A stretch of 64,000 nt of DNA from IMG/VR virus record IMGVR_UViG_3300017917_002466, positions 186,001 through 250,000 of that record, one strand, 5' to 3'. Under the pieces are notes generated by a model. That model was not told the origin of the DNA. It saw only the letters and a program-made list of their open reading frames with translations, and made no database searches. The stretch comes from a virus. Positions 7,308 to 53,074 of the stretch are shown one piece after another (the first letter of the stretch is position 1; each line of letters starts with the position of its first letter). The position numbers and the translations under genes were made by a program.

Positions 7308-8747
7308 TTAAACCGCATCAAAAGGATTTGGTTTCTTTACCTCTGGGGATTTGGCCTCTTTCTTCTTTTGCAAGAACTTCTTGAAACCTTGCTTAAGCTG
7401 ATCGGCTTTGGACTTTGCAGTATCACCAACTTCCTCAGCTCCCTTCTTAATTACTTCTCCAGCCTTCTCTACACCAGATTTGACCTTGGTTTCTATATCA
7501 CCTTTTTCGATTGCTTCTTTAGCTTTCTCTATACCAGCCTTTGTTTTAGCTTCTATTCCTTTACCAACTTCCTCAGCTCCCTTTTCAATTTCCTTACTAA
7601 CTTTTTTAGTACCTTTTTCAATTTCTTTACCAACTTTTTCGGCTCCTTGTGTTACTTTTTCTCCGGCCTTTGCTCCCTGTTCTTTTACAATCTCAACAAT
7701 CTTTTCAGCATTCTTCTGTGCCTTTTTAAAAGCTTCTTCACCAGTATCACTCTTAGCAAAGACGTGTTGGCCTGAACCCATAATCATTAATATAAGAGCG
7801 GCAGCAGTTAGAACTTTAGGACTCTTCTTAGCAACAAGGTCAAGAATGTTCTCCTTCAAAATTTCTCCACTAAGAATTTCTTCCTCAAAAGTCAACTGCT
7901 TCTTATCCATCATATGTCTTGCAATATCCATTGCGTGAACGAAATCTTCCTTATTATCATTTAGCCACTGTATCATTTCGTCCTTTGAAAGACCCATGAC
8001 TTCTCCACAAACACCCTTGATCTTTTCCTGAATCCTCTTGAATGCGGCTCTTGCGGCTCCTTTCAAAGCGTCTATTCCTTTTCCTTCTTCAAGAACTCCA
8101 AGCTTCTTTGCCTTGAACTCGGAGAAAGATTCGGTCTTGGTATCATAAGCCTTATCACCCTTTTCCAACTTATCTGTCTTACTTGTACCTGACATATGAG
8201 CTTTATTTGGCTTAATATCCTTTGGTAATTCATAATCAGGTTTAAACTTATCAGAAACAATTGCTTCTCTATCTTCTGTATCAACTACTTCTTGTGGAAC
8301 CATTTTAGTCCAAGTTATCTTACCAATTTCATTTCCTTTAATAACTTCTTTAGTTTCCTCATCCTTCCTATCAGCAGTATCATCTATTAAATTATATTTT
8401 TTAATTTTCTTTTTCATAGCTTCTAAAATAGACTTAATGGGTTGTATAGATGAACCATATGTAAAAAAACTAAAAGGATTTTTTTCTTTAATAAAATTAT
8501 TAACGGCTTCAGCAAAACTAGAAGCAATTTTAGAATTTGAATCGTTTATACTAATTCTATGAGAAATACTGTTTTCAAATTCCAGTATCCAAGTATTAAA
8601 ATCTTCTGAACCATTTCCACCAACAGAATTGCATAATAATGCGTATTCTACTCCATCAACAACAAATCTATTTTCCCATTTTCCAGCCATTCCATTATAA
8701 ATTTGTTGACTTTCTAGTTTTTCTATTAAAATATTTTTAAAAGACAT
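7308..8747 (-). CDS. Tagged virion-type protein with hydrophobic segment and amphipathic repeats
   Basis: 479 residues beginning MSFKNILIEKLE, a capsid-tag-like start. Around residue 310 there is a hydrophobic stretch (VLTAAALILMIMG), long enough for a membrane segment. The last 130 residues are repeats of the type E-K-x-x-E-E-x-x-K-G, apolipoprotein-like amphipathic helices. Together these suggest an internal head protein that may interact with membrane during DNA entry; that is inference. Driven by a late promoter at 8778 and followed by a hairpin terminator. Confidence 0.6.
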   Translation of the reverse strand: MSFKNILIEKLESQQIYNGMAGKWENRFVVDGVEYALLCNSVGGNGSEDFNTWILEFENSISHRISINDSNSKIASSFAEAVNNFIKEKNPFSFFTYGSSIQPIKSILEAMKKKIKKYNLIDDTADRKDEETKEVIKGNEIGKITWTKMVPQEVVDTEDREAIVSDKFKPDYELPKDIKPNKAHMSGTSKTDKLEKGDKAYDTKTESFSEFKAKKLGVLEEGKGIDALKGAARAAFKRIQEKIKGVCGEVMGLSKDEMIQWLNDNKEDFVHAMDIARHMMDKKQLTFEEEILSGEILKENILDLVAKKSPKVLTAAALILMIMGSGQHVFAKSDTGEEAFKKAQKNAEKIVEIVKEQGAKAGEKVTQGAEKVGKEIEKGTKKVSKEIEKGAEEVGKGIEAKTKAGIEKAKEAIEKGDIETKVKSGVEKAGEVIKKGAEEVGDTAKSKADQLKQGFKKFLQKKKEAKSPEVKKPNPFDAV

Positions 8748-8777
8748 TTTTAATCCTCCTTTGATAATCTTTAATAG

Positions 8778-8785
8778 TATTTATA
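8778..8785 (-). promoter_or_regulatory. T4-type late promoter (minus strand)
   Basis: TATAAATA on the minus strand, 31 bases upstream of the 479-residue gene. It shares two bases with a plus-strand copy in a palindrome (8777-8792), so late transcription should diverge from this point. Confidence 0.65.
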
Positions 8786-8791
8786 TAAATA
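8784..8791 (+). promoter_or_regulatory. T4-type late promoter (plus strand)
   Basis: TATAAATAC facing right toward the folded leader at 8795-8867 and the broken endonuclease gene. Confidence 0.6.
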
Positions 8792-8794
8792 CTA

Positions 8795-8867
8795 TTAAGA
8801 GATTAGACTTAATATTCGTTGTATTAAGTCAACAAGATGAGGTTTCATATCTTGCTGTTCCTCTTAA
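8795..8867 (+). ncRNA. Structured leader RNA, divergent copy D
   Basis: P1 pairs TTAAGAG 8795-8801 with CTCTTAA 8861-8867. P2 pairs GACTTAATA 8806-8814 with TATTAAGTC 8822-8830. P3 pairs CAAGAT 8833-8838 with ATCTTG 8849-8854. The sequence is unlike the leaders at 756, 1567 and 3316, but the three-stem layout and position (after a late promoter, before an endonuclease gene) are the same. Confidence 0.5.
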
Positions 8868-10113: not shown

Positions 10114-10533
10114 TTATCTCCTTGCTAAGAAAAGCTCATCATCATAGGTTTGAACTTCTCTATTTTCTATAAGACTATGTATTTCTTCTAAAGCTTCATT
10201 TTGATTTTTGAAAGTTCCATATTTAAGAACCAAGTTCTCATCAAATATTCCAAAAATATTATCTCTCTCAAACACAAATAGACGATTTCCTTTAGAGTGT
10301 GGTTTTCCATCTAAATCCAAATTATTTAAACTATCTTCGTATTCTGTAAAAAATACGCTACCGTCATTAGACAAAGGGTAATTACCTTGTCCATCAGTCA
10401 CAGTATATAGAGTGTATGGACCTTTTTCAAAATTCCAAGACCACATATCCAATTCAATTACTTGTCTTGGAGATTCTTCTTCCATCTTTTCAAGAAGAAA
10501 ATTGGCTTTGTTCATATAAAAGTCTGATTTCAT
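10114..10533 (-). CDS. Hypothetical protein
   Basis: 139 residues, start ATG after AAGGAAT. NFLLEKMEEES near the N-terminus could be a variant tag (LLE). Conserved aromatic-rich strands (DMWSWNFEKGPYTLYTV) and a GIFDENLVLKYG strand suggest a small beta-rich domain. No family recognised. Late promoter at 10579. Confidence 0.45.
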   Translation of the reverse strand: MKSDFYMNKANFLLEKMEEESPRQVIELDMWSWNFEKGPYTLYTVTDGQGNYPLSNDGSVFFTEYEDSLNNLDLDGKPHSKGNRLFVFERDNIFGIFDENLVLKYGTFKNQNEALEEIHSLIENREVQTYDDELFLARR

Positions 10534-10644: not shown

Positions 10645-12069
10645 TTATTTCCAGTCTTTTATAAACTTTTCAATTGATTTCATATCATTTATATCAATTT
10701 CATTATTAAGTACATAATCTATTGTGTCTTTAATAATTTTACCAAATTGAATTCCTTGTTTAATATCTGGTCTTAATTTCATTATTAAAGCACCATTAAT
10801 AACTTTTTTAACAGGATCAACAATATCTTTACCTTTAACCATATTTCTGACTTTTTCTATTTTTTCTTGAATATCATCCCATTCTTTTTGGTCAAATAAA
10901 CTACCTCTGCTTTTATTATCACAATATGCCGTCTTTTCTAATAAATCAAAATATGGCGATTTAACTAAAGTAGCAACAGTACTATTATTCATTTTTAAAA
11001 TATCAAAAAATTTCATATGATTTTCGGCTACCCATTTTATAGCAGAAATTGTATCATTATCCATCTTCATTCTTTTACCAATTTCTTCTATCATCTTACC
11101 AGATTGTTCAGCATGGCCATGATAAGAATGGGTTCCTTTATCTGTTAATGCATATGTTTTATTTTTACCCAAATCATGCATTAATAAACACCAATTTAAT
11201 AAAGCATTAGGTTCTTTATTTACTTTAAGAACTTCCATGACATGACCGAAAACATTTGGAGATTCTGGATGGTGGTCTGGTGAATGTAACATTGACTCTT
11301 GTTCCACCAATTCAGGAAGAACATATTTCAATATTCCAATATCCTTTAACATAATAATAGCATCTGCAAACTTTGATCCGGATTGTTTTGCCATAGATGT
11401 AAGTTCTTTTAGTATTCTTTCTTGTGCGACCTTCTTTATCTCTGGTGCGTGTGACTTCATTGCTTCTAATGTTTCTTTGTCAATATCAAATCCAAGACGA
11501 GAAGCAAAACGAATTCCACGAAGAACTCTTACTTCATCTTCCTTAAAGCGTAAATTAGGATCACCAACGGCAGCAACCACTTTCTTTTCAATATGGTCTA
11601 ATCCACCATGATGGTCTATAATATTACCATCTTTATCAATACCAAGTTGATTGATTGTAAAATCTCTACGAGAAGCATCATCCTTAAATGATGTTGTAAG
11701 TTCTACTTTGTCAGCTCCTTTACCACCTTCACCAGAATACAAATCTTTTCTATAGGTAGCAATTTCTACGTTTTGACCTTTGTATGGAATAACAGTAACG
11801 CCCATAGCCTTATTCTTTCCAATGTCAATAGTTCTTCCAAATATCTTTTCTATTTCATCTGGAGTAGCATTAGTAGTAATATCAACATCATTTGGATTAT
11901 TACCTAATACCAAATCTCTAACAACACCACCAACCATGAGGGCTTCAAAACCAGCAGCATTGATCTTATCTAAAATCTCAATAGCGTTTCTGATTTCGGG
12001 ATTGCTTTGTTTAATGGAATCCCAGTTATTTAATTTAGTTTCTTGAAAGTAATACTTTTCAAATCTCAT
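10645..12069 (-). CDS. cca: Tagged CCA-adding enzyme / poly(A) polymerase family with HD domain
   Basis: 474 residues. After the tag-like MRFEKYYFQET comes a class II nucleotidyltransferase head: LMVGGVVRDLVLG and DVDITTNATPDE (the G-G-x-V-R-D and D-x-D metal motifs near 44-65), then RRDFTINQL near 134. The C-terminal half has an HD domain (LMHDLGKNKT near 297, HGHAEQSG). This is the tRNA nucleotidyltransferase-HD layout of bacterial Cca, which builds or repairs tRNA CCA ends. The N-terminal tag suggests packaging in the virion. The two following genes overlap in a tight operon. Confidence 0.88.
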   Translation of the reverse strand: MRFEKYYFQETKLNNWDSIKQSNPEIRNAIEILDKINAAGFEALMVGGVVRDLVLGNNPNDVDITTNATPDEIEKIFGRTIDIGKNKAMGVTVIPYKGQNVEIATYRKDLYSGEGGKGADKVELTTSFKDDASRRDFTINQLGIDKDGNIIDHHGGLDHIEKKVVAAVGDPNLRFKEDEVRVLRGIRFASRLGFDIDKETLEAMKSHAPEIKKVAQERILKELTSMAKQSGSKFADAIIMLKDIGILKYVLPELVEQESMLHSPDHHPESPNVFGHVMEVLKVNKEPNALLNWCLLMHDLGKNKTYALTDKGTHSYHGHAEQSGKMIEEIGKRMKMDNDTISAIKWVAENHMKFFDILKMNNSTVATLVKSPYFDLLEKTAYCDNKSRGSLFDQKEWDDIQEKIEKVRNMVKGKDIVDPVKKVINGALIMKLRPDIKQGIQFGKIIKDTIDYVLNNEIDINDMKSIEKFIKDWK

Positions 12070-12620
12070 TTTAATTTTTCCACGTTTAATATTTTAATTA
12101 AAGAATCAGAATAAGCTACATAAATTTTTCCTCTTCCTTGTATATCATCAGCAATAGACCCATAAACATTTAAATCATAAAGAAATTCAGAAGCTTTTTT
12201 ATCACTTTTAAAAGTATCTCTTAATATTCCATAAGTTTGATCTAAATTATAAGTTTCTCTATAACTTTCTAATTCTTCTTTCATATTATTAGCATCTTCA
12301 TCATAACCATTTTCTTCGAGTTTATTAGCTATATCTAAATATATATTTTCAGGAATAAGTTGATCCCATTCATAAAAATTTTCTAATCCATTAATTTTAA
12401 CTTCATATAAAAACATTCCCTGATGTTTTTTACCTAAAAAATTTTCACGAGCATAATATTCAGCCAATTCTATATTATCGGCAAAATATAATCCAAATCC
12501 ATATTTATTTAATCCATCGCCAGTTCCAACTTTATTCAAATCAAATTTATTAAAAGAATAAGCTGATCCATGATAAAGGACTTTAGATTCTTCTGTTAAA
12601 TAATATTCATCGAATTTCAT
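12066..12620 (-). CDS. Tagged ADP-ribosyltransferase-like protein
   Basis: 184 residues. Tag MKFDEYYLTEES, then KVLYHGSAYSFNKFD, GTGDGLNKYGFGLYFADN and a distal VYGSIADDIQGRG. The Y-H-G-S ... Y-G-x-G-L-Y-F pattern is that of ADP-ribosyltransferases found in polyvalent phage proteins (ART-PolyVal type). T4 packages Alt, an ADP-ribosyltransferase that modifies host RNA polymerase and also carries this kind of targeting sequence. The catalytic Glu was not placed with certainty. Confidence 0.72.
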   Translation of the reverse strand: MKFDEYYLTEESKVLYHGSAYSFNKFDLNKVGTGDGLNKYGFGLYFADNIELAEYYARENFLGKKHQGMFLYEVKINGLENFYEWDQLIPENIYLDIANKLEENGYDEDANNMKEELESYRETYNLDQTYGILRDTFKSDKKASEFLYDLNVYGSIADDIQGRGKIYVAYSDSLIKILNVEKLK

Positions 12621-13141
12621 GATACATACCTTGAAAATCTAGAAGCAGCTAATTTAGCATCTTCTAATGTTTTAATATCTTTACTTCCGTGTTTAATGAA
12701 TGGAGTTTTATCATCATTACTAAAATATTCATCAAATAACTTATCTCCAATTTTAAATCCACAAATTGCACGATGACTCCACCCATACCATTTTTTACTA
12801 GTAGGTGAATAACCAATACTACAAACAGAATGTTTAGGACTTACTTTTTCAAATTGTTTTATTTTAAATTTATCTGATAAATGTTTAGCTGTTTTAGAAT
12901 CACCAATCCAATCACCATTTTCATTGTATGCATTTAGCATTTCAAGTTTACCATTTCCACCATATTCACTATCATCTATTAATTCTTTTTTAATAATATA
13001 ACTACCATGATTTCTAGTAAAAATAATTTCTTTTATTTTGAATGGACTCGCTTCTAATAATATATTTTTAAAAGCTGGTTCTAATAATGATAAAAAATAT
13101 TCAGTTGAGTCTTCATTAAAATATAATTCGTCAAATCTCAT
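12617..13141 (-). CDS. Tagged hypothetical protein with WYGWSHRA motif
   Basis: 174 residues beginning MRFDELYFNEDS (tag). The core has SIGYSPTSKKWYGWSHRAICGF, a pattern I have seen in phage and bacterial proteins of unknown function. Stop and start overlap with the next gene by 4 bases. No catalytic assignment is possible. Confidence 0.6.
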   Translation of the reverse strand: MRFDELYFNEDSTEYFLSLLEPAFKNILLEASPFKIKEIIFTRNHGSYIIKKELIDDSEYGGNGKLEMLNAYNENGDWIGDSKTAKHLSDKFKIKQFEKVSPKHSVCSIGYSPTSKKWYGWSHRAICGFKIGDKLFDEYFSNDDKTPFIKHGSKDIKTLEDAKLAASRFSRYVS

Positions 13142-13143: not shown

Positions 13144-13752
13144 TTAATATCCTCTCATTTTTTTTAGTCTTTCTGGGCTATTATTTACAACATTTTTACC
13201 ACTATTTGAAATACCCCCATTAGCTTTTATCAATCCTTTTTGTAATAATGACTGATGTATTTCTTCTGGTACTCTTGGTCTAGCCGATGAAATTAAACTT
13301 TGTTTATAATAAAGATGTTTGAACTCTTCATCGGAAACTTCAGTTGATATATCTGGTAAAAATTTAGAAGCATCAGAAGCGGTATAAATTTCTAATCTTG
13401 GAGGATATGTACCAACTACAGCCATAACAAAACCACTTGGAATTTCGGTTTCTCCGCCAATTTCTTTTCCAGTAATTGCTCCATCTCCTTCCATACCGCT
13501 TCTTGTAAAAGAAAAAGGTACTTCAATAGCTTTATTATTAGAAACCAATTTAAACATTTGATAATATTCTCTATCAGCTTCATGCCAAGGTATATCTACT
13601 TTTATAGTTCCTTTTTGAATTAATCTAATATGAGAATTAATTTTTTTATAAAGTTTTTCATCAGCCCATTTCAAAATTTCAATTGGAACTTGTTTTCTAT
13701 CTAAATTTACATTTTCTATTAAATATTTTTCTAGTTCTGATAAGAAACTCAT
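13144..13752 (-). CDS. Tagged hypothetical protein
   Basis: 202 residues from the second ATG (13750-13752), placed 7 bases after AGGAG. Starts MSFLSELEKYLIENV, giving L-x-x-Y-L-I-E. The body is beta-rich (WHEADREYYQMF, VAVVGTYPPRLEIY). No family recognised. Confidence 0.55.
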   Translation of the reverse strand: MSFLSELEKYLIENVNLDRKQVPIEILKWADEKLYKKINSHIRLIQKGTIKVDIPWHEADREYYQMFKLVSNNKAIEVPFSFTRSGMEGDGAITGKEIGGETEIPSGFVMAVVGTYPPRLEIYTASDASKFLPDISTEVSDEEFKHLYYKQSLISSARPRVPEEIHQSLLQKGLIKANGGISNSGKNVVNNSPERLKKMRGY

Positions 13753-13833: not shown

Positions 13834-14313
13834 TTAATTTTTTTCTTCTTTTGGATATTCATTTATTTCCAAAACTTCATCTTCTTTAATATTTATATCT
13901 TCTTTAACCATAGTTACTTGTCCTTTCATTCTATTTTCTTCTTTAAATCCTTTTGCTAACAAAATCTTTTCCATTGTTGGATTAACAACATATGCTCTTA
14001 TTATAGGTTCATCAAAAGCTTCTTTGTCTTGATTATATGTATCAATTGCAATATCAACCAATCTCTTTCCAACTCCCTTACCTTGAAAATCATCACGAAC
14101 TACAACATCAAAAGAGAATTCTCCACTTAACCAAGTTGTCCAAAGTGCACCAACTACTTCATTATTTAAAATAGCAACTGTATGAATTTCTTTATCTGAT
14201 AGGACTCCAATATCATATTTCTTGGCCATTTTATAGGCATCATCTATATGCTTTGAGTCTAGCTCATCTGCATAAACATATGCAACATTTTCATAAAATT
14301 CTACAAAGTTCAT
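13834..14313 (-). CDS. Tagged GNAT acetyltransferase
   Basis: 159 residues. Tag MNFVEFYENV, then the GNAT core: VGALWTTWLSGEFSFDVVVRDDFQGKGVGKRLVD contains the acetyl-CoA pyrophosphate loop (Q-G-K-G-V-G-K, motif A). Acceptor unknown; could be a host protein or a small molecule. After the stop the same frame stays open for 20 more codons (LLNLFPNAKFPDYMN, ending at 13766), which suggests the C-terminus was shortened by a recent nonsense change. Confidence 0.75.
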   Translation of the reverse strand: MNFVEFYENVAYVYADELDSKHIDDAYKMAKKYDIGVLSDKEIHTVAILNNEVVGALWTTWLSGEFSFDVVVRDDFQGKGVGKRLVDIAIDTYNQDKEAFDEPIIRAYVVNPTMEKILLAKGFKEENRMKGQVTMVKEDINIKEDEVLEINEYPKEEKN

Positions 14314-14693
14314 GTTATATCTTTAAGTACCTTTTGGAAAACTTTCTTGCCCAAAGGAGTAAAACCGCCCGTCTTCTTCCTATGTTCTGGGTATTTTTCC
14401 CAAAACTCTTTAGCAAGCAAAGTTCCTATTCCCTGTTTTTGAAATTCTTGAACCACCGATAAATCAGTTTCATCACCACCAAGTTTAAGAATAAATCCGA
14501 CTTCTTGAATACCAATTTTTGCTATGATTCCTTCCCCATTATCATATAGCTTTACTTTTCCAACCATCTTATAAGGCTTCAATCCATCTGTCATACCTTC
14601 CATATCTCCGATATGCAGAACTGGTCTTGAAGAATTCGGAATATCTTTTCCGTAATCTTCTATATTTTCTTTATAAAAGCTTATAAAGTTCAT
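14310..14693 (-). CDS. Tagged small GNAT-like acetyltransferase
   Basis: 127 residues. Tag MNFISFYKEN. The pattern DLSVVQEFQKQGIGTLLAKEFW matches the GNAT motif A (Q-K-Q-G-I-G-T) on a short core. Its start overlaps the next gene's stop by 4 bases. Two adjacent tagged acetyltransferases suggest modification of host proteins early in infection, by inference. Confidence 0.65.
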   Translation of the reverse strand: MNFISFYKENIEDYGKDIPNSSRPVLHIGDMEGMTDGLKPYKMVGKVKLYDNGEGIIAKIGIQEVGFILKLGGDETDLSVVQEFQKQGIGTLLAKEFWEKYPEHRKKTGGFTPLGKKVFQKVLKDIT

Positions 14694-15322
14694 TTTGTTT
14701 CCTTCACCTTTCCTGGAATAAAAACTTCAAGATGATCTCTACTTATAAATCCACCCTTACCTCTTTTGTAAGGGTCTGCTATTGGTCTTGGCTTTCCTTT
14801 CTCTTGACCTAACCACTTATCACCTTTAAGTGACTTAATATCTCTTGATACAACTTTATTTAAAAGTAATGGTAAATCTTTAGTATCTACTTTAACCCAA
14901 GAACCTTTATATTCTTTACCAACTCCAAATTCTTTTGCCTCTTGAACAAAATGACACCAAATATCTCCGTGATGCTGAAACTTCTTAATAGGTGGAAATC
15001 TATACTCTGGTTCTCCATACTCGTCCGTTCCAATCTTAACCATCATTTCCTTATTCCACGCTGCAAGAAAAGGCTCAATATAAGGCCAGATATATGCATA
15101 GATTCCTCTATGCTCTGGTGCGTGATGGAATCCAACAATCGGACTTCCGAGTTCTTCACTTTTAGAAAACGCCTTTTCCTTTCTCTTATCTTGCTTGGGG
15201 TTCATATGACCCCAACGAGCAAACATAATTTTAGGAGCCTTCTCAGATTTTTCTCTTGCCTTTACTCTGATAGGCTCCTCGTCTTCATCGTCATAATAAT
15301 AGGCTTCAAATTGATTAATCAT
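14690..15322 (-). CDS. Tagged hypothetical protein
   Basis: 210 residues, begins MINQFEAYYYDDEDEE (aromatic run followed by acids, a variant tag). The middle has GFHHAPEHRGIYAYIWPYIEPF and FQHHGDIWCHF, histidine- and aromatic-rich motifs that look like a conserved active site, but I do not recognise the family. Confidence 0.55.
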   Translation of the reverse strand: MINQFEAYYYDDEDEEPIRVKAREKSEKAPKIMFARWGHMNPKQDKRKEKAFSKSEELGSPIVGFHHAPEHRGIYAYIWPYIEPFLAAWNKEMMVKIGTDEYGEPEYRFPPIKKFQHHGDIWCHFVQEAKEFGVGKEYKGSWVKVDTKDLPLLLNKVVSRDIKSLKGDKWLGQEKGKPRPIADPYKRGKGGFISRDHLEVFIPGKVKETK

Positions 15323-15686
15323 AAAAATCTATTACGTCTGCCTCATTAAAAGCTATTTCCATATTATATTCATTTATTTGAACATCGCTTATATCTTTAT
15401 TTTGTAACAACTCGTTTTTTATCTTAACAATAGTTTCTGGTGGAACTCTACCATTATATGCTTTGCTCGTAATAGGAAATGAGATATATGCATCAAATTT
15501 ATGGATTCCAGTAGGAACATCTTTCTTTTTGATTTCTCCATCAATTTCAATTCCATATTGACTCAAGTATTCTTTTAATTCATTAACGCGAATGTCTGCT
15601 ATCATAAACATATCTTCATCAGCACCTACAGTAACAAAAGAAGATTTGGATTCAAGCGCCTCTTTTAAATATTCATTAAAACTCAT
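15315..15686 (-). CDS. Tagged hypothetical protein
   Basis: 123 residues from the ATG at 15684-15686, 6 bases after AAGGAG; a longer frame to 15701 lacks a proper SD. Starts MSFNEYLKEALES, one of the closest matches here to the T4 tag MKTYQEFIAEA. The rest is an alpha/beta small domain, function unknown. Confidence 0.6.
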   Translation of the reverse strand: MSFNEYLKEALESKSSFVTVGADEDMFMIADIRVNELKEYLSQYGIEIDGEIKKKDVPTGIHKFDAYISFPITSKAYNGRVPPETIVKIKNELLQNKDISDVQINEYNMEIAFNEADVIDFYD

Positions 15687-15687: not shown

Positions 15688-16293
15688 TTATGCTCCTTCA
15701 CTCTTTTCTTCCGGGTCTGAAAGGTGGAAATCTATTTGATCTTTGAACTTAAAGAAGTCTACAAGGTAAACATCGTTATCAGTCCAATTGATAAGCTCAA
15801 ACTTTTTCTCATCATCCATATCTTTAGGAAACGAAACCCATTCACTATTCTCATAATCCCAATACTTTTTGAAAGCATCTATTGGAACCATATGAGCAAC
15901 TGCTACAGAATGTCCCTGCTTTTCAATATCCATTGCCTTTGCGGAATCGTCTGTAACCATAACAAGCTTACCTTCTGTAAACTTATCATAAGAACCTTCT
16001 GGTCTATCCGCTGAATAGTAAACTATAAAAGTTCTCTTTGGTTTTTGTGTTACTTGTGGTTCAGATGGTGGTGTATTGAAATCTGTATTGCTTCTATCTC
16101 CACCAAGCTTCTGTTGTCTCTTGATTTTGACTTCCAATGGAGCATACTTCCACTGATCTTCTTTAGGAAGACTCTTTACCTTAATCTTATTACGCTGGCC
16201 GGATTTAGTCCTATGCCAAACATATCTTTGGCGCCAGTCGTCGTTAGGATTTCTTTCTTCTGTTAGTAAACAGAAAAATTGAAAATCATTCAT
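15688..16293 (-). CDS. Tagged hypothetical protein
   Basis: 201 residues. MNDFQFFCLLTEERN has LLTE as a likely cleavage site. A basic N-terminal third (WRQRYVWHRTKSGQRNKIKVK) may bind nucleic acid. The C-terminal part is acidic. No family recognised. It abuts the GP88-like gene. Confidence 0.55.
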   Translation of the reverse strand: MNDFQFFCLLTEERNPNDDWRQRYVWHRTKSGQRNKIKVKSLPKEDQWKYAPLEVKIKRQQKLGGDRSNTDFNTPPSEPQVTQKPKRTFIVYYSADRPEGSYDKFTEGKLVMVTDDSAKAMDIEKQGHSVAVAHMVPIDAFKKYWDYENSEWVSFPKDMDDEKKFELINWTDNDVYLVDFFKFKDQIDFHLSDPEEKSEGA

Positions 16294-17822: not shown

Positions 17823-18011
17823 TCATTCCTTTTGTATTGATGAAACTTCTGCTTTGGTTACTTGTTTCTTTTTCTTTCTTGCTTTATTTTCTGCTTCCTT
17901 TGCATTCTTGGCTTGTAAAAATCCAACTTTTGGTTTTCCTTTTTCAACGTAAGAAACTTTATATGTTAAATCTTTCTGAAAAGATTCTAAAAAATATTCT
18001 AAAAATGACAT
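17823..18011 (-). CDS. Short tagged basic peptide
   Basis: 62 residues. Nearly all tag plus a basic helix: MSFLEYFLESFQKD, then a short KVGFLQAKNAKEAENKARKK segment. After cleavage a lysine-rich peptide of about 50 residues would remain, like T4 internal peptides and proteins that bind packaged DNA. It is the first gene behind the late promoter at 18062. Confidence 0.55.
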   Translation of the reverse strand: MSFLEYFLESFQKDLTYKVSYVEKGKPKVGFLQAKNAKEAENKARKKKKQVTKAEVSSIQKE

Positions 18012-23810: not shown

Positions 23811-23812
23811 AC

Positions 23813-24664: not shown

Positions 24665-24666
24665 AC

Positions 24667-25104: not shown

Positions 25105-25107
25105 TTA

Positions 25108-26357: not shown

Positions 26358-26444
26358 AACAAATTTCCGAAACAATACAAACATCAACACATGCTATGGG
26401 CTTGTATTAAAGTAAGAAGTTATATTCTCTTTGTGGTATTAATT

Positions 26445-34074: not shown

Positions 34075-34076
34075 TA

Positions 34077-36257: not shown

Positions 36258-36259
36258 TT

Positions 36260-37675: not shown

Positions 37676-37800
37676 TTTTTAACTCCTCTTATTAAAATTA
37701 AATCCACCGAAAACAAATTACTTTTATAATACCATTTATTCATTAATTTATTATATTCAATTTATTGTTCATCGCAAAATATTTTTATATTCTTAAATTT

Positions 37801-41760: not shown

Positions 41761-41765
41761 AATTA

Positions 41766-46275: not shown

Positions 46276-46860
46276 TTATCTTTTGAACGAATAATAGAAG
46301 TCTACTAAACTTCTATCCTTCTTTACTTTTTCAAATACTTCCTTGGAGTCTTTATTGGTTCTTATGATTTTGTAATCTTCTACGGGGTTTCTTTCGCCGG
46401 TTTCTGATCTTTGCTGGGATTGCTTGATTGCGACTTCTTCGGGAACATCTATGTGAATGAGCACTGTTGTAAATCCATTTGCCTTTGCAAGCTGAAGTTT
46501 CGCAATAGTTCCATTTAGATTTGCATTAGTACCAGTATGAATGAAGGATTCTTTTTTAGTAAAGGCTATTGGGAGTTCTTTTTTAAACTGAGAGGTAGCT
46601 TTACCGGCGAGTTCTCTTTTGTATTCTCCGCCGCCTATCTTAGAAGCTAAAATATCTACATCATAAACTGGTAAGTTACCAACTACTTTCTTTAGAACAT
46701 TATCAATGAAGTATGTCTTTCCTGAACCAATTCCACCACCAACGGAAATAAAGAGCTTATCTTCTAAATAGGTCTTCAAGTCGTCAATATTGTTTAACGA
46801 CCTACCATAAAAGGTATCGCTCTCGTAAAACTCAATAAAGTTATGGATTTGGTAGGTCAT
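46276..46860 (-). CDS. Tagged P-loop kinase / zeta-toxin-like protein
   Basis: 194 residues from the ATG at 46858-46860, after GAGGGGA. Start MTYQIHNFIEFYESD carries the tag pattern F-x-x-F-Y-E. Then LFISVGGGIGSGKTYFIDNVL (Walker A, G-x4-G-K-T), YDVDILASKIGG, and VLIHIDVPEEVAIKQSQQRSE with Arg residues typical of zeta-toxin and polynucleotide-kinase folds. Likely phosphorylates a nucleotide sugar, nucleic acid or small molecule. Confidence 0.72.
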   Translation of the reverse strand: MTYQIHNFIEFYESDTFYGRSLNNIDDLKTYLEDKLFISVGGGIGSGKTYFIDNVLKKVVGNLPVYDVDILASKIGGGEYKRELAGKATSQFKKELPIAFTKKESFIHTGTNANLNGTIAKLQLAKANGFTTVLIHIDVPEEVAIKQSQQRSETGERNPVEDYKIIRTNKDSKEVFEKVKKDRSLVDFYYSFKR

Positions 46861-47257
46861 AAGAAGAATCCCCTCGCATTGCATCATCTACGGCTAAAGG
46901 TTTATAACTCTGTGGTGGTTTTGGTTCTTCCTTTGGAAGTATCTTTACCTTCTCCACCTTATCTTGAATGTTTCGCAGAAATTTACTCTTTGCTTTATTA
47001 ATGATTTCGTGAATTCTCTGCTTGACCTTCTTTATATATGAGTTATCACCTTGCATATACTGTCGGATTTCGTTTCCAACAGCCACATCAAAATCGCCGT
47101 AGTTAGGGAATCTTCTTTCAAGATAGTTACAAAGTCTTGAAACAAATGCAGGATTTAAACCAACTGAAGCAGACTCTTCCTCTATCAGAAGTTTTACTTC
47201 ATTGGTGAAAGCTTTGGCTTCGCTTTCTTGAAAATAATGATCTTGAAATTTCTTCAT
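46841..47257 (-). CDS. Tagged hypothetical protein
   Basis: 138 residues. Tag MKKFQDHYFQESEA (YFQE), then a helical domain (FVSRLCNYLERRFPNYGDFDVA) and a basic segment. The C-terminus is Pro-rich. Unknown family. Its start codon overlaps the AAA gene's stop. Confidence 0.55.
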   Translation of the reverse strand: MKKFQDHYFQESEAKAFTNEVKLLIEEESASVGLNPAFVSRLCNYLERRFPNYGDFDVAVGNEIRQYMQGDNSYIKKVKQRIHEIINKAKSKFLRNIQDKVEKVKILPKEEPKPPQSYKPLAVDDAMRGDSSYDLPNP

Positions 47258-48204
47258 TATAGCATTGTCTTTTCTGAAAGGTATATAGTAGATTCTTTCA
47301 AATGACTTTCAAGATTACTTCTTAACCTCTTTATAACTTCGTCTTCATTCTGTTTCAAACAAAATGCCGATACAATGAATTCTCTTAGCTGTGCAAAGGT
47401 GAAATCCTTTGTCTTCTCAGCCAACTCCATAATCCTCTTTTCATCCTGATGTTCCTTTAGCTTTGCTTTTAAGTAGGCATATCTTCCAGTTGTTGGTGGA
47501 TTTCCAATCTCTATCTTCCTATCAAATCTGGAAGCTCTAAGAATTCTAGGAGGAAGTCTATCAATATAGTTAGTTGTTCCAAGAAACAATACATTGTTGG
47601 TCTGTGCATCACCATCAAAAAGCTCAAGGATAGCGTGTTCTCCATACTTTACAATCTCGTCAATGTCTTCCATAATGACAAGAATCTTTCTCTCTGGCTC
47701 AACTTCTCTTACAACTTTAAGTGCTTCAACAAGGTCGTGTGCTTCTCTAGTAATGAAAACTATGTTACCCTTACTTACCATATCTTCCATTGCTAACTTC
47801 AAAAGTGCACTCTTACCACTTCCCGGTTGACCATAAAGAAGAACTCCTCTCTTATGAGTGAATCCATACTTCTTAAAATCATCCTTCAATGTCCAGAAGT
47901 TATCAATCTCTTGAAGTATCTTAGTATAACGAGAATCTTCAAAGCGAAGAATATCATCAGTATTAATATCGTGAACTTCAAAGAAAACACCAGACATATT
48001 TCTCTGTATTCTGAAAACACCAGCGGGAATAGTCTTCTCGGTTACTACTTCACCAACAGGCTGAAAAGAATTACCTTGCACGATATACTTCTTGTAAATC
48101 TGCTTTCTCTTACTTGGTTGTGTTGAAAGAACCTTTGGACCAATATCAATTGGTTCAGCCTTTAAACAGGATTGATTTTCTTTGATAAATTCTCTAAAGC
48201 TCAT
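47257..48204 (-). CDS. Tagged AAA+ ATPase
   Basis: 315 residues. Tag MSFREFIKENQS. AAA core with GVLLYGQPGSGKSALLKL (Walker A near 127-134), ILVIMEDIDEIV (Walker B), LFLGTTNYIDRLPPRIL (sensor 1) and RASRFDRKIEIG (Arg finger region). Closest in type to BCS1/FtsH-like single-AAA remodelers. A packaged AAA ATPase could remodel a host protein at infection; that is inference. Confidence 0.85.
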   Translation of the reverse strand: MSFREFIKENQSCLKAEPIDIGPKVLSTQPSKRKQIYKKYIVQGNSFQPVGEVVTEKTIPAGVFRIQRNMSGVFFEVHDINTDDILRFEDSRYTKILQEIDNFWTLKDDFKKYGFTHKRGVLLYGQPGSGKSALLKLAMEDMVSKGNIVFITREAHDLVEALKVVREVEPERKILVIMEDIDEIVKYGEHAILELFDGDAQTNNVLFLGTTNYIDRLPPRILRASRFDRKIEIGNPPTTGRYAYLKAKLKEHQDEKRIMELAEKTKDFTFAQLREFIVSAFCLKQNEDEVIKRLRSNLESHLKESTIYLSEKTML

Positions 48205-48503
48205 ATTAAAACCCCCTTTCCTAAAATATCTTCAACCATCCATCTTGCTCTTGTTTGAATCTTTGCAATAAGCTCTTCTTTATCTTGAACTACTGCACCT
48301 TTCTTAATGGCTATTCCAATTGCTTCAGCAGCTTCTCTTGCCTTTATCATAGCGTTACTTAACTTTATAACATTTGAATTAAGCAACTTTTGATAGTCTT
48401 TTCCTTTTGGTTGTTGTGCCAAAGGGGATTCTATTGGCTCTTCACCAATGGCTTCACCTAGGTATCTTTCAGCTTCACCTAGGTATTTTTTGTAATCTTT
48501 CAT
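48201..48503 (-). CDS. Small protein with tandem tag-like units
   Basis: 100 residues. MKDYKKYLGEAERYLGEAIGEEP repeats Y-L-G-E twice, giving two possible gp21-type cut sites. The rest is a helical charged domain. Late promoter at 48522. Confidence 0.55.
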   Translation of the reverse strand: MKDYKKYLGEAERYLGEAIGEEPIESPLAQQPKGKDYQKLLNSNVIKLSNAMIKAREAAEAIGIAIKKGAVVQDKEELIAKIQTRARWMVEDILGKGVLI

Positions 48504-48529: not shown

Positions 48530-49937
48530 AATTCTTTAATCTTATAATATTAGCTATTTCTTCTTTTTCTTCGGTTGTTAAAATCTCTGGTGTCCATTTC
48601 ATTGATTTTAGATATTCCAAATTGTTTCTTATATTAGAAGCTGAAATTTTTTCATCCGATTCTTCGCCCACTCTACCGAATTCCATAATCCGTACTTTAG
48701 AGTATTTATCTTTATGTTTTACAAAATAATCATACTTCTTCGTATCGCCTTCTGTTCCTCCGATAAGAACCTGACTAACTTCGTTCTGGTGAGTATCCAC
48801 CCAATCGTATATATCTTTAACCGGTGTTATTTTACTTAACAATATTTCAACTGGTTTGTTGATATGCCTTATATAAACTTCCCATATCTTTTTAGATTGT
48901 TCGGCTGTGATAGTTTCTCCTTCTCTCAGCTTATGACCAATAAAAATGATTATCTTATCAGACTGTTTTGATAGTTGTTCAACTATACTAAAATGTCCTT
49001 TGTGTGGTGGTTTAAACCCACCGGCATACAATCCTATAATTCCAGCATCACTACTTTCCCAAAAGTAATGTTCAACAAAGTTGCCAGAGAAAGCCTGTTT
49101 GATTTTATTAATGGCTCCCAATTTCATTTTTTCTTTTGCTGTTCCAACTTCACCAGATTTAACTGATACTAAAGATTGAAAGGTACCAGGGATTCTTCTT
49201 CTTGATCTTGGCTGTTTAACTTGTTTATTAACTGAATCTAATAGTTCATCGAAGCTACTATATATGTTATAATTGTGAAACAGTTTTTCCACATCAGGCC
49301 AATTAGTTGTAGACCAAACATCTATATGTCCAACATCTCTACTATCTTTAACATCAACGACTCTTAAAGTTAACTTATTAGAGGAAAGATTAAATTCATA
49401 CTCTTGATCTTTTTCTAATGCGGGCACTTTTCTAATTCCTAATTTCTTAAAAACAGTATTGTAATCTTCTTCTAACAACAACACTTTAGCCAAAGCCACC
49501 AGTATGCCTTGTTTATCTGCCGGTAGATTTAGGAACTGTTCTTTGAAATCATATTCCTCTGTGGACAAAGCAATGATATTATCTATTTGAATATTACCTT
49601 CAGCCCCAACAATAGGATACAAAATCGTAATTATTTCACCTGAATTATAATACTTACGTCCTTTATATAGTGAAGATTGGAAAGGAACAATAACTCTATC
49701 TGGCATAGATGATACATAATCTATAATTGCTTTTTTGACTGCTTTCTTATCGTTTCCCTTAAAATGAACTACTATATCTAAATCACCATAATCATCTTTG
49801 GATTTTATTTTAGCACTACCTGTTAATTTGGCATTTTGAAAATCAGGAATATTTTGTAGTACTTTTCTCTGATAATCAGCAAAAGTTCTATCAACATTGC
49901 TTTTTAGTATTCTGGAACCACCAGCAACTCCACTCAT
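48525..49937 (-). CDS. Nucleotidyltransferase joined to NMNAT-like domain by an internal tag
   Basis: 470 residues. The N-terminal domain is polymerase-beta-like (LTGSAKIKSKDDYGDLDIVV, G-S then D-x-D, near 39-56). The C-terminal domain is a cytidylyltransferase-fold adenylyltransferase: GLYAGGFKPPHKGHF (H-x-G-H near 312-315) and KISASNIRNNL (I-S-x-S-x-I-R). Between them, at 286-294, lies NFVEHYFWE, the same tag motif found at other N-termini. Cleavage after Glu294 would free the NMNAT-like domain. Starts TAATG-coupled to the upstream gene. Confidence 0.75.
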   Translation of the reverse strand: MSGVAGGSRILKSNVDRTFADYQRKVLQNIPDFQNAKLTGSAKIKSKDDYGDLDIVVHFKGNDKKAVKKAIIDYVSSMPDRVIVPFQSSLYKGRKYYNSGEIITILYPIVGAEGNIQIDNIIALSTEEYDFKEQFLNLPADKQGILVALAKVLLLEEDYNTVFKKLGIRKVPALEKDQEYEFNLSSNKLTLRVVDVKDSRDVGHIDVWSTTNWPDVEKLFHNYNIYSSFDELLDSVNKQVKQPRSRRRIPGTFQSLVSVKSGEVGTAKEKMKLGAINKIKQAFSGNFVEHYFWESSDAGIIGLYAGGFKPPHKGHFSIVEQLSKQSDKIIIFIGHKLREGETITAEQSKKIWEVYIRHINKPVEILLSKITPVKDIYDWVDTHQNEVSQVLIGGTEGDTKKYDYFVKHKDKYSKVRIMEFGRVGEESDEKISASNIRNNLEYLKSMKWTPEILTTEEKEEIANIIRLKNL

Positions 49938-50890
49938 TATATTCTCCTATCTTCAAAATAAATATCTTCAAACTTTAGCGATTCGGTTTTATACTTTATA
50001 AGTTTAGAATTGTCTGGTAAAAACTTTCCTTTTAATCCAAGTCTATCTTGGTTTTTAATCCAGTATTCTTGAAGGTCTTCTGGTATATCTGCTCTTGTAC
50101 TATCTAATATCTTTAGGTAAGTATCGTACAATTTATTCAAATCTTCTTTAGATAGATTAGCTCTTACAAATTTTTGTAGCTTAAAATAGTCTTCCAGTAT
50201 ATTTTCGTTTATATCAAACTTATATATTTTGTTTAAAAGTTCAATAGCTTCTTTTGGATTGGAAGCTGCCATCTCTTGCGTTTCTTTATTCTTCACACCA
50301 TAATTATGCGAGAAGGTATATCCCTTGATTGCATAAAGGGCTAACATAAGTTGTGTTCTGTGCAATCCTTTTACATTACCGCTATATGTCGATGAATAAT
50401 ATGCGAAACTAAGCCAATCAATATTACCAACATTCAAATCTATTTGAACCCAATCTTTGAGTTTCTTTCCCGAAGAATCGAATTGTGGGAAAGCAAAAAA
50501 CAAAGAACCACCAATACTACCTTTAGTATCTAAATGAATATCCTTGACTTTTTCAAGAATTTTTTCTGATAGAGCCACTAAAATAGCTCTTTTCATAATT
50601 TGCTGGTCTGTGGAAGTTTTTGACCTTTTCTTAAAATTATTGAAAAGACTATTGATATGTTCTTGGTCTAAATTCCATTCTTTGATGTTCTTAAAAATAT
50701 CTTCGGATATAGCCAAGTCTATATCACCAGAAACATCCTTCTTTCCTACTGAACCCAGTGTTCTAATATCTTTAAAGTATTTCCGAGCTTTAGGAAAAAC
50801 AGTGGCCAACTCTTCATAGAACTTGGCAAGAGTTGGTTCAATGTTTTCCTTGCGAATCGAAGTTGTTAAATCAAAAACATTTCCACCCAT
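49937..50890 (-). CDS. Polymerase-beta-like nucleotidyltransferase with C-terminal tag motif
   Basis: 317 residues. TLGSVGKKDVSGDIDLAIS (G-S, D-x-D near 46-60) is the MNT fold signature. The protein ends SLKFEDIYFEDRRI, so the tag-like motif sits at the extreme C-terminus instead of the N-terminus. Together with the next gene, which has the motif internally, it suggests modular spread of the tag. Under a sigma70-like promoter at 50913. Confidence 0.7.
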   Translation of the reverse strand: MGGNVFDLTTSIRKENIEPTLAKFYEELATVFPKARKYFKDIRTLGSVGKKDVSGDIDLAISEDIFKNIKEWNLDQEHINSLFNNFKKRSKTSTDQQIMKRAILVALSEKILEKVKDIHLDTKGSIGGSLFFAFPQFDSSGKKLKDWVQIDLNVGNIDWLSFAYYSSTYSGNVKGLHRTQLMLALYAIKGYTFSHNYGVKNKETQEMAASNPKEAIELLNKIYKFDINENILEDYFKLQKFVRANLSKEDLNKLYDTYLKILDSTRADIPEDLQEYWIKNQDRLGLKGKFLPDNSKLIKYKTESLKFEDIYFEDRRI

Positions 50891-50912
50891 TATTAGTTCC
50901 TTTCTTTAATAG

Positions 50913-50941
50913 ATAATAACATTTTCTTTTTCAAAAATCAA
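50913..50941 (-). promoter_or_regulatory. sigma70-type promoter
   Basis: TTGATT (50936-50941), 17 bases, TATTAT (50913-50918), upstream of the nucleotidyltransferase gene and right after a terminator hairpin. Confidence 0.5.
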
Positions 50942-50975
50942 CAAGCCAACCAAATTATTAGTTTGATTGGCTTGT
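50940..50975 (-). terminator. Rho-independent terminator
   Basis: On the minus strand ACAAGCCAATCAAA pairs with TTTGGTTGGCTTGT around a short loop, followed by TGATTTTTG. It would end transcription of the large acidic protein gene at 51026. Confidence 0.7.
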
Positions 50976-51025
50976 CTTCAAATCAATTCCTCTCTTTTTG
51001 TTTATTTCAACTTGAAGCCATTTCC

Positions 51026-53074
51026 TTATCCCTTGAAACCACCTTTCTTATATTCTGGTGGCAAAGCTGGTGCACTAATCTTCTCTACTTTTTGACCAGT
51101 CTTACCCGGCTTAGCTGTAAAGCTTCCCTTTGGAGCAGCCTTGGAAGGAGCCTTTGGTGCACTACCAACCTTCTCAATCTTCTTTGGTGGTGCTTTTGGC
51201 TTTGCTGTCAATGCTGTTGATGGGCCTTTCTTAGCAGGAGAAGATGGTGCAGATGGAATCTTCTCAATCTTCTCACCTGGCTTGCTTGGCTTTGCTGTCA
51301 ACGCTGCTGTTGGGCCCTTGACAACTGGTGCCTTTGGAGCTGGCTTAATTGAAGCAATAGTCTGATTGATAACACCTGGCTTAGAAGTTAATCCACCACC
51401 TTGAGTAGTTGCCATCTTTGGAGGTGTCAATGCATCTTCGTCAAGATCAAAGTATTTATTAGCGGCAATCTTTACAAAGCTAAGAGACTCTTCCTGACTT
51501 CCAGAGGCTTCTTCATCATCGTCTTCTGATTCCTCTCCCTCTTTTTCATCATCCTCAGATTCCTTTGGTTTCTCTGCTTCTTCTTCAGCAGGAGCAGCTT
51601 CTTCCTCACCACCAAGTTCAGCAGAAGTCTTCTGAAGCAACCATTCAAACGGGTCGCCAGTTCTTGCCTTCATTGTTCCATATGGCATTTCATCTGCATA
51701 GTAATCCATCAATGCCTGATAAAGCTCATCTGATGGATCGTTCTGTGGGTCTGCTATCCAAGCCTTAAGCTCTTCAAACTGTTCAGGAGAAAGGGCTTTC
51801 TGAAGTCCAACTGATCCTAGCTCTTCCTCACCCTTATCACAAGGAACACATTCTTCTGCACCGGCTGGGCAAGACTTTTCCTCTGCTTTCTCAGAATCTT
51901 CTAATTTTTCTGTTTCTTCTTCAGCATTAGGTGAAACTGCACTCTTTGCTAGTTCACCAAGGGTCTGTTCCATTTCTTCAATCTGCTCAAGATCAAAATA
52001 GTTTTCTGTTCCTTCCTTATCAATACAAATAACTTCGTTATTCTCAGTAATAGAATTGACCTTATACCACTTGCTTTCAACCTTTACAAGAGTATTGATA
52101 AGCTTTTGAAGATCAAGACTCTCAAGTTCAGTAGAACCAATTACACGAACAGGAGCAACGATACATTCTTCTGCATCGCCTTCTTCCTCACCTTCACCGG
52201 CGGCAATATCTTCCCAATCAATTTCCCCAGCATCCTCAGGCTCTTCACCTGCATCCTCTGGTTCCTCGCCAGCATCCTCAGGCTCTTCACCTGCGTCTTC
52301 TGGCTCTTCACTAACATCCTCTGATTCATCACCAAACTCATCAGCTTCAGAAACAAGCTTCTTATTACTTGAAGTAGATTCTTCTTCAGTTCCAGAAATT
52401 TCTTCCTCGGATGCACCGGCTCCCTCTGATTCTCCCTCGGCCGGTTCTTCCTCGGACTCTCCCTTCTCAACCTTAAATCCCTTGAAAAGATTCTCAAGTG
52501 AATCTACAAATGCCTTTGCTTCTTCTTCGTCTTCAAAATCGTGTTCAGACTTTTCAAGACCAGTGTTTTCAGAAGGCTCAACCGTTACTTTGTTATCCAC
52601 AACGGAAACTTTTACTACCTTCTCATCTTCTCCTTCTCCACCAACCGATCCTCCCATTTCTGTTCCAAGTTCCTCAGTTGGCTCTACCTCGTCCATTTCT
52701 TCCTTGACTACATCCTTCTTACCTTTCTTACTTTCAGTTTCCATTCCAGTAACAGAAGTACGTGTTGAACCCTTCTGAACATCTCCTGTATTAATAATAA
52801 TTTTAACATCCCCTTCTTCTAAAGAGTTTATTTTTTCAATAATATAATTCAAATTTTCTTTAACAAAAATAGAATCTATATTTTTAGGAGAAATTTTTGG
52901 ATTTACAAACTCATTTTGAATTTTAAAGATAGCATTCTTTTTATCAATATATGGTTCGTCAAATGCTGCTTTAATTACTTCAATTACTTTATTCCATTTT
53001 TCAGAAATAATCTTCTCAGTAGAAGAAACATCTTCTTTATAATTTTCCTTTAAATAGCTTAAAAATTCCAACAT
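51026..53074 (-). CDS. Tagged large acidic protein, head-core-like
   Basis: About 682 residues from the ATG at 53072-53074, chosen because AAGGAG precedes it and the protein then begins MLEFLSYLKENY, the tag. The same frame is open to 53167. The middle is very acidic with four EEPEDAG repeats. A small beta-rich segment (LVKVESKWYKVNSITENNEV) follows. The C-terminal 150 residues are Pro/Ala/Lys repeats (T-A-K-P, K-I-E-K). It resembles prohead-core or internal head proteins in composition; no family was recognised. Terminator downstream at 50940. Confidence 0.6.
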   Translation of the reverse strand: MLEFLSYLKENYKEDVSSTEKIISEKWNKVIEVIKAAFDEPYIDKKNAIFKIQNEFVNPKISPKNIDSIFVKENLNYIIEKINSLEEGDVKIIINTGDVQKGSTRTSVTGMETESKKGKKDVVKEEMDEVEPTEELGTEMGGSVGGEGEDEKVVKVSVVDNKVTVEPSENTGLEKSEHDFEDEEEAKAFVDSLENLFKGFKVEKGESEEEPAEGESEGAGASEEEISGTEEESTSSNKKLVSEADEFGDESEDVSEEPEDAGEEPEDAGEEPEDAGEEPEDAGEIDWEDIAAGEGEEEGDAEECIVAPVRVIGSTELESLDLQKLINTLVKVESKWYKVNSITENNEVICIDKEGTENYFDLEQIEEMEQTLGELAKSAVSPNAEEETEKLEDSEKAEEKSCPAGAEECVPCDKGEEELGSVGLQKALSPEQFEELKAWIADPQNDPSDELYQALMDYYADEMPYGTMKARTGDPFEWLLQKTSAELGGEEEAAPAEEEAEKPKESEDDEKEGEESEDDDEEASGSQEESLSFVKIAANKYFDLDEDALTPPKMATTQGGGLTSKPGVINQTIASIKPAPKAPVVKGPTAALTAKPSKPGEKIEKIPSAPSSPAKKGPSTALTAKPKAPPKKIEKVGSAPKAPSKAAPKGSFTAKPGKTGQKVEKISAPALPPEYKKGGFKG
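52227..52310 (-). repeat. Four tandem 21-bp coding repeats (EEPEDAG)
   Basis: Four 21-base units with few differences encode repeated EPEDAGE in the acidic protein. Copy number is likely to vary between isolates by slippage. Confidence 0.8.

What the first reader, a model, noticed from the sequence alone, without database searches (positions are those of the whole stretch)
7308..53074. About 25 unrelated proteins share a T4-like capsid-targeting N-terminus
The first 8-15 residues of many proteins follow F-x-x-[YFL]-[LIYF]-x-E or F-x-x-x-Y-[FL]-x-E: MSFNEYLKEA, MSFREFIKEN, MSFQEYLKEK, MRFDELYFNE, MKFDEYYLTE, MRFEKYYFQE, MKKFQDHYFQE, MNFISFYKEN, MLEFLSYLKE and others. The T4 internal proteins and Alt use a tag of the form MKTYQEFIAEA, cut by gp21 after L/I-x-E. 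Here the tag is attached to a CCA enzyme, an ADP-ribosyltransferase, two acetyltransferases, an AAA ATPase, a kinase-like protein and an HAD phosphatase as well as unknowns. That implies a broad cargo injected with the DNA. The tag matches are seen; packaging is inferred.
Basis: partly seen in the sequence, partly recalled or inferred. Interest (0 to 1): 0.88.

Follow-up and report, generated by a model that had tools for sequence, protein, structure and literature searches.

The report
Phage tags many proteins for injection
A group of giant T4-like phages carries the short start-of-protein address label that T4 uses to load a few proteins into its head on about twenty unrelated proteins, including a predicted immune-signal blocker and an RNA-repair enzyme, so these phages probably inject a ready-made toolkit together with their DNA.

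Summary
The window is part of a 253,664-base T4-like phage record. A tag model trained on six relatives and tested on this phage finds 21 tagged N-termini at p<=0.002 (0.77 expected); 14 in the window pass p<=0.005. One more appears once a start is corrected, one tag sits in an inter-domain linker and one at a C-terminus; about 25 is reached only with weak cases. In seven related phages 89 tagged proteins fall into 64 unrelated clusters. Replication, sugar and small early-type regions have 0 of 282. The two halves of the tag match the T4 IPIII residues shown by mutation to target (4, 7) and to be processed (8, 10). An S77 (gp21-type) prohead protease is encoded, and capsid proteins of the clade have the same [LIF]-x-E motif at the predicted propeptide junction. 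Cargo includes a Tad6-family anti-Thoeris protein, an ADP-ribosyltransferase, a CCA-adding enzyme and an AAA ATPase. T4, RB69, KVP40 and P-SSM2 show 3-7 tags; RaK2 and phiN3 show chance levels. The mechanism is the T4 capsid-targeting sequence, greatly expanded and with a distinctive 8-residue form. Packaging, cleavage and injection remain inferred.

The parts
7308..8747 (-). 479-aa protein, MSFKNILIEK tag
   Evidence: PSSM p=0.00046; apolipoprotein-like helical C-terminus below cut-off
10114..10533 (-). 139-aa protein with second-type N-terminal tag MKSDFYMNKANFLLEK, resembling the last residues of the scaffold protein (YAEKANRYLDE)
10645..12069 (-). CCA tRNA nucleotidyltransferase with tag MRFEKYYFQE
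   Evidence: PHROG 6e-75, NCBIfam 9e-71, PSSM p=0.00003; phiN3 and Tunturi_5 homologues lack the tag
12066..12620 (-). ADP-ribosyltransferase (ART-PolyVal) with tag MKFDEYYLTE; domain starts at residue 13, after the predicted cut at E10
   Evidence: Pfam PF18760 E 2.8e-7, over cut-off; p=0.00003
12617..13141 (-). Tad6-family (type I Thoeris inhibitor) protein with tag MRFDELYFNE
   Evidence: Pfam PF25188 E 1.4e-36, residues 47-174; p=0.00049
13144..13752 (-). 202-aa unknown, MSFLSELEKYLIE
   Evidence: p=0.00157
13834..14313 (-). GNAT acetyltransferase, weak tag MNFVEFYEN
   Evidence: Pfam over cut-off; tag p=0.05
14310..14693 (-). GNAT-like protein, tag MNFISFYKE
   Evidence: Pfam 5e-4, below cut-off; p=0.00385
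14690..15322 (-). 210-aa unknown, weak tag MINQFEAYYYDD
   Evidence: p=0.095
15315..15686 (-). 123-aa protein, MSFNEYLKEA
   Evidence: p=0.00003
15688..16293 (-). 201-aa protein, degenerate tag here; the G002 homologue is tagged (MDFLEHYILTEE)
16293..17819 (-). 508-aa conserved protein, MRFLDHYFKD (D at the processing position)
   Evidence: p=0.00023; F3, H6, Y7 invariant in four phages
17823..18011 (-). 62-aa protein, MSFLEYFLE
   Evidence: p=0.00088
19281..19508 (-). 75-aa protein, MSFQEYLKEK
   Evidence: p=0.00003
20737..21267 (-). HAD/5'-nucleotidase-like protein; tag degenerate here, clear in G002 and G005 homologues (MKFEEYYLKEE, MKFKEHYLKEE)
21267..21656 (-). 129-aa protein, MILFSDFYLSE
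   Evidence: p=0.00085
21700..22062 (-). protein with corrected start MAFLEILKEM
   Evidence: p=0.009; ribosome site at corrected start
22161..43998 (-). sugar/glycosyltransferase module, untagged internal negative control
   Evidence: 0 of 25 genes tagged
46276..46860 (-). zeta-toxin-like / AAA_33 kinase, weak tag FIEFYES; G002 homologue MSFESYYSHTE
   Evidence: Pfam over cut-off; tag p=0.018
46841..47257 (-). 138-aa protein, MKKFQDHYFQE
   Evidence: p=0.00003
47257..48204 (-). AAA ATPase with tag MSFREFIKEN
   Evidence: PF00004 6e-16; p=0.00036
48201..48503 (-). 100-aa protein, MKDYKKYLGEA
   Evidence: p=0.00088
49056..49079 (-). internal tag FVEHYFWE at the joint of the 470-aa nucleotidyltransferase-adenylyltransferase fusion (gene 48525-49937)
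   Evidence: p=0.0001; 7-residue insertion relative to homologues; low-confidence linker 285-298 in the model
49949..49972 (-). C-terminal tag FEDIYFED of the 317-aa nucleotidyltransferase-like protein (gene 49937-50890)
   Evidence: C-terminal addition; homologues 59-62% identical stop before it; p=0.0036
51026..53074 (-). large acidic protein, tag MLEFLSYLKEN at corrected start
   Evidence: AAGGAG site; p=0.0001; G002 homologue MLEFANYLKES

Best explanation
The shared N-terminus is a capsid-targeting propeptide that works like the capsid-targeting sequence (CTS) of T4 internal proteins. Two aromatic residues three apart (F..Y/H) dock each protein on the scaffold core of the prohead; the following [LIF]-x-E is cut by the phage's own S77 (gp21-type) protease during head maturation; the freed enzymes are trapped with the DNA and ejected into the next host. 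In this clade the signal has become a general export tag, carried by about twenty unrelated proteins per genome and clustered in cargo islands. It can also sit in the linker of a two-enzyme fusion or at a C-terminus. Shown by sequence: the tag, its enrichment, location and modularity, the protease, the matching capsid-protein motif. Inferred: scaffold binding, cutting, injection and what the cargo does.
For: (1) Held-out test: 21 tagged N-termini against 0.77 expected; 89 tagged proteins in 64 unrelated clusters across seven phages. (2) Choosing genes only by F..[YFH][YFLI] gives 121 N-terminal cases against 15.5 expected, and [LIFY]-x-E follows in 86/121 against 95/385 internal cases, p=8.5e-20: a targeting half and a processing half that go together. 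(3) In T4 IPIII residues 4 and 7 target, 8 and 10 direct processing (PMC9026906); MKTYQEFIAEA read from T4 ipII/ipIII has Y4, F7, I8, E10. (4) S77 protease E 6e-24. (5) Predicted capsid-protein propeptide junctions of the clade read LTEAS, LGEAS, ISEAS, ITEAS, LFTEAS, IFMEAN, like T4 gp23 SFLTE65-A; F-x-E occurs there too, matching YYF-x-E tags. (6) 0 of 282 genes tagged in replication, small early-type and sugar regions against 19 of 45 in head-proximal and cargo regions. (7) Modularity: CCA homologues elsewhere lack the tag; the 317-aa tag is a C-terminal addition; the 470-aa tag is an insertion in a linker. (8) A Tad6-family anti-immune protein and an ADP-ribosyltransferase are among the cargo, in line with the known roles of T4 internal proteins (PMC12373910) and Alt (PMC9026906).
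Against: No virion proteomics is known to me for this clade; its capsid protein is only about 34% identical to cultured phages. Some tags end in D or lack a clear cut site. Two relatives (G005, G007) have few tags. Gene starts come from a simple caller of my own, the region grouping was made after seeing the hits, and some tagged cargo in this phage has tagged homologues in the training set.
Confidence: 0.82

Rival explanations
1. The tagged proteins are head-core or scaffold helper proteins that are packaged and processed but act in head assembly or stay in the head, rather than being effectors delivered into the host.
For: Several tagged genes lie next to the capsid, scaffold and protease genes (G 23252-25097); T4 IPIII mutants have head-assembly defects (PMC9026906); some tagged proteins are acidic or helical without a known domain.
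Against: Much of the cargo is enzymes or a predicted immune inhibitor with no assembly role known to me; cargo is variable between relatives, 64 clusters among 89 proteins.
Confidence: 0.25
2. The motif is an amphipathic docking helix for another phage assembly or compartment (for example a replication or translation hub), unrelated to the capsid.
For: A short aromatic helix could bind many partners; binding to the scaffold has not been shown.
Against: Exact match to the mapped T4 CTS residues; coupling to the [LIF]-x-E motif of the capsid protein junction; absence from replication genes.
Confidence: 0.07
3. Chance or N-terminal composition bias, or recent duplication of one 5' end.
For: Starts such as MSF, MKF and MNF recur among the gene starts of this genome.
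Against: Shuffled N-termini give 1.4-2.6 hits; internal null 0.77 against 21; codons of the tags differ from gene to gene.
Confidence: 0.01

Closest known systems
T4 capsid-targeting sequence (CTS) of internal proteins IPI-III
   Same: N-terminal propeptide of about 10 residues, [FY]xx[YF][IL]xE, on otherwise unrelated proteins, with an S77 prohead protease in the genome; T4 IPs are injected and inhibit type IV restriction enzymes (PMC12373910; PMC9026906).
   Different: About 20 clear tagged proteins instead of 3-7 (T4 3, RB69 7, KVP40 5, P-SSM2 5); a distinctive 8-residue form F..[YH]Y[FL].E; enzymes as well as small inhibitors; a linker and a C-terminal copy.
T4 Alt
   Same: Alt is a packaged ADP-ribosyltransferase cut by the prohead protease, the natural counterpart of the tagged ART here; Alt is cut at both ends (PMC9026906), a precedent for tags away from the N-terminus.
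   Different: The ART here matches ART-PolyVal (PF18760), with no match to an Alt family reported.
phiKZ/SPN3US head ejection proteins
   Same: Giant phages that package many proteins and cut head proteins after a glutamate (PMC5694885; PMC9026906).
   Different: There most propeptides are long and the protease is of family S80; here short T4-type tags and an S77 protease.
Tad6 type I Thoeris inhibitors
   Same: Pfam PF25188 match E 1.4e-36; a YerA41 homologue is annotated as a structural protein in a phage with 63 particle-associated proteins (PMC7354516).
   Different: Here it carries a capsid tag; the YerA41 homologue has none. Inhibition was not tested.

Membership tests
T4-type capsid-targeting sequence (CTS) | short N-terminal peptide shared by otherwise unrelated proteins | tested here: met
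   89 proteins, 64 clusters after the tag is removed
T4-type capsid-targeting sequence (CTS) | targeting residues: aromatics at positions i and i+3 (T4 residues 4 and 7) | tested here: met
   121 N-terminal F..[YFH][YFLI] against 15.5 expected; T4 mapping from PMC9026906
T4-type capsid-targeting sequence (CTS) | processing residues hydrophobic-x-E | tested here: met
   86/121 against 95/385, p=8.5e-20; E 59, D 7 at the processing position
T4-type capsid-targeting sequence (CTS) | S77 gp21-type protease in the same genome | tested here: met
   PF03420 E 6e-24
T4-type capsid-targeting sequence (CTS) | same cut motif in the major capsid protein propeptide | tested here: met
   [LIF]-x-E at the predicted junction in nearly all of the 14 capsid proteins read, LAEAS in L033
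T4-type capsid-targeting sequence (CTS) | incorporation into the prohead core and binding to the scaffold | not testable with these tools
   needs virion proteomics or fusions
T4-type capsid-targeting sequence (CTS) | ejection into the host | not testable with these tools
   needs an infection experiment
Tad6 (type I Thoeris inhibitor) | sequence match to PF25188 over its curated cut-off | tested here: met
   126 bits against a cut-off of 27
Tad6 (type I Thoeris inhibitor) | inhibition of Thoeris | not testable with these tools
   not assayed
T4 Alt | membership of the Alt ADP-ribosyltransferase family | tested here: not met
   best Pfam match is ART-PolyVal; no Alt family listed

The most novel reading that the evidence does not exclude
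A modular protein-delivery system: each virion of this phage clade carries about twenty different ready-made effectors (immune-signal inhibitor, ADP-ribosyltransferase, tRNA repair enzyme, kinases, nucleotidase, ATPase). They are addressed by the CTS-like tag and by a second tag that mimics the scaffold protein's own C-terminus. The tag can also act as a protease-cut joint inside fused enzymes, and a D at the processing position would mark cargo that is packaged but not cut.
Probability: 0.5. Interest if true: 0.9.

Novelty: new variant of a known kind. Interest (0 to 1): 0.78.

Why it matters
Which proteins a phage injects is usually unknown. Here a ten-residue rule predicts the injected set from sequence alone, in a clade with no close cultured relative, and it names an anti-immune protein and several enzymes that would act before any phage gene is expressed. 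The PMC9026906 authors suggested that the CTS may be a general way for T4-like phages to package varied proteins; this clade looks like that idea carried to about twenty proteins. It also offers natural tags, including linker and C-terminal versions, for loading proteins into phage heads.

Tried and rejected
AlphaFold model of the 508-aa cargo was too poor to use (mean pLDDT 51). A viral-contig scan with the Tad6 protein and one with the CCA enzyme found no relatives. A PF25188 search in eight related records was negative, but with no positive control anywhere. Chance and composition bias were rejected by shuffles, internal windows and phage controls. The YerA41 Tad6 homologue being called structural is only weak support, because that preparation also held polymerases and helicases and the GenBank label was not traced to the mass-spectrometry table.
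Full report
What was checked. The window is bases 186001-250000 of a 253,664-base virus record. The record was read in stretches and 386 genes were called with a simple coding-score and ribosome-site caller. It is a T4-like phage: its major capsid protein is about 34% identical to gp23 of cyanophages and phiN3, and it encodes an S77 prohead protease. No close cultured relative was found: 20 kb of the window has no nucleotide match in the phage collection.

The tag is real. The union pattern is on 24 N-termini against about 3 expected, and the 8-residue form F-x-x-[YFHELI]-[YF]-[FLIM]-x-E on 7 against 0.1. Relatives were fetched through the capsid protein and read in stretches. All have more tagged N-termini than expected. 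A weight matrix trained on six relatives and tested on this phage gives 21 N-termini at p<=0.002 against 0.77 expected. Over seven phages 89 tagged proteins form 64 clusters that do not match each other once the tag is removed. Thirteen tagged proteins of this phage have no clustered tagged homologue in the training phages.

The tag has two coupled halves. Choosing genes only by F..[YFH][YFLI] near the N-terminus, and ignoring what follows, gives 121 genes against 15.5 expected; [LIFY]-x-E then follows in 86 of 121, against 95 of 385 internal matches (p=8.5e-20). The T4 review PMC9026906 reports that in IPIII residues 4 and 7 govern targeting and residues 8 and 10 processing, and that D at 10 allows targeting but blocks processing. 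MKTYQEFIAEA, read from T4, has Y4, F7, I8 and E10, so the two halves fall on the same positions. Tags ending in D, such as MRFLDHYFKD of the 508-aa protein, are therefore predicted to be packaged but not cut.

The protease and its other substrate agree. Nearly all of 14 major capsid proteins of the clade have [LIF]-x-E at the predicted end of the propeptide (LTEAS, LGEAS, ISEAS, ITEAS, LFTEAS, IFMEAN, LLREAS), homologous in place to SFLTE65-A of T4 gp23. F-x-E occurs there too, which fits the YYF-x-E tags.

Location. Tagged genes lie beside the head genes (G 23-25 kb), at 44-47 kb, at 100 kb, in the cargo island 193.3-208.1 kb (11 of 23 genes) and at 230-239 kb. None of 282 genes in the replication, small early-type and sugar regions is tagged, including the 25-gene sugar module in the middle of the window. 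The grouping of regions was made after the hits were seen.

Modularity. CCA homologues of phiN3 and Tunturi_5 start at or near the enzyme domain without a tag. The 317-aa nucleotidyltransferase-like protein ends in KTESLKFEDIYFEDRRI, whereas homologues 59-62% identical stop just before the tag. The neighbouring 470-aa fusion has NFVEHYFWES between its two enzyme domains, where homologues 51-52% identical have a linker seven residues shorter that reads LSEAL or LAEAL, itself an [LI]-x-E-A site. In the model the tag lies in the low-confidence stretch 285-298. A G005 homologue of the 201-aa protein likewise has an internal FKGFYMNE after the shared domain. The tag therefore looks like a portable element, possibly a cut site between fused enzymes.

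Cargo. Assigned with Pfam, PHROGs or NCBIfam: CCA enzyme, ART-PolyVal ADP-ribosyltransferase, Tad6-family Thoeris inhibitor and GNAT domains, AAA ATPase and zeta-toxin-like kinase, a nucleotidase-like HAD protein in relatives, a cupin beside the capsid genes, and a cytidylyltransferase-like, nicotinamide-nucleotide-adenylyltransferase-like domain in the 470-aa fusion. Where a domain is known it starts after the predicted cut, as early as residue 13 in the ART. About half remain unknown.

How unusual it is. With a pattern matched to T4, tagged starts number 3 in T4, 7 in RB69, 5 in KVP40 and 5 in P-SSM2, and are at chance in RaK2 and phiN3, although all six have the S77 protease. The principle is known; the number, the enzyme cargo, the 8-residue form and the linker and C-terminal copies are what is new. 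Papers found with 'capsid targeting sequence' concern mostly T4, and P1, P22 and SPN3US; judged by title and abstract none describes such a set.

A possible second tag. [FY]..[KRQ]A[NS].[YFLI][LFIYM] occurs only 7 times in 344,092 positions of the seven phages. Three are the last residues of the scaffold proteins (YAEKANRYLDE and variants); four are N-termini of small proteins in tagged islands or beside tagged genes, one of them after moving the start to an ATG with an AAGGAG site. Cargo may thus imitate the scaffold's own tail. This is a lead, not a result.

Limits. Packaging, cutting and injection are inferred. Gene starts are my own calls. Relatives share some cargo families with this phage.

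Noticed in passing
window 10114-10533; G000 102138-102497, 102503-103006; G000 28683-29480 C-terminus; G005 69537: Second N-terminal motif (Y..KAN.LL) shared by four small proteins and by the last 11 residues of the scaffold protein; 7 occurrences in 344,092 positions.
   Followed up: partly
G000 143033-146723 (outside the window); G002 44012-47334: Runs of about ten small genes, mostly consecutive, whose proteins start M-x-[RK]-W and often share a later T-D-V-like motif; N-terminal [RK]W on 17 genes against 2.8 expected in G000 and 12 against 3.0 in G002, at chance in T4, KVP40, RaK2, P-SSM2 and RB69.
   Followed up: partly
G000 180.3-186.7 kb, window 145-675: An isochorismatase-domain protein, perhaps a nicotinamidase (PF00857), next to proteins that by eye look like NadD, NadE and nicotinate phosphoribosyltransferase: a possible NAD salvage set near the anti-Thoeris cargo.
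   Followed up: no
window 18028-19212: Lysine 2,3-aminomutase-like radical SAM protein (KamA family, over that model's cut-off), untagged, inside the cargo island.
   Followed up: no
window 22161-43998: Long untagged sugar module with several glycosyltransferase-like proteins, a nucleotidyltransferase, methyltransferases and two similar B12-type radical SAM proteins (by eye).
   Followed up: no
L178-L257 (HAD homologues), L258-L260: In other phages the HAD protein often has a different N-terminal extension of the form LxxLLxE (for example MGKLIDLLLTEED, MKFLKDLLNEG), and L258-L260 also carry MKKxxLRELIREI-like starts: perhaps other clades' own packaging tags.
   Followed up: partly
G004 79341-87206: Six tandem tagged paralogues of about 380-465 aa (MNFREHYFIEKFG...), unknown function.
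   Followed up: no
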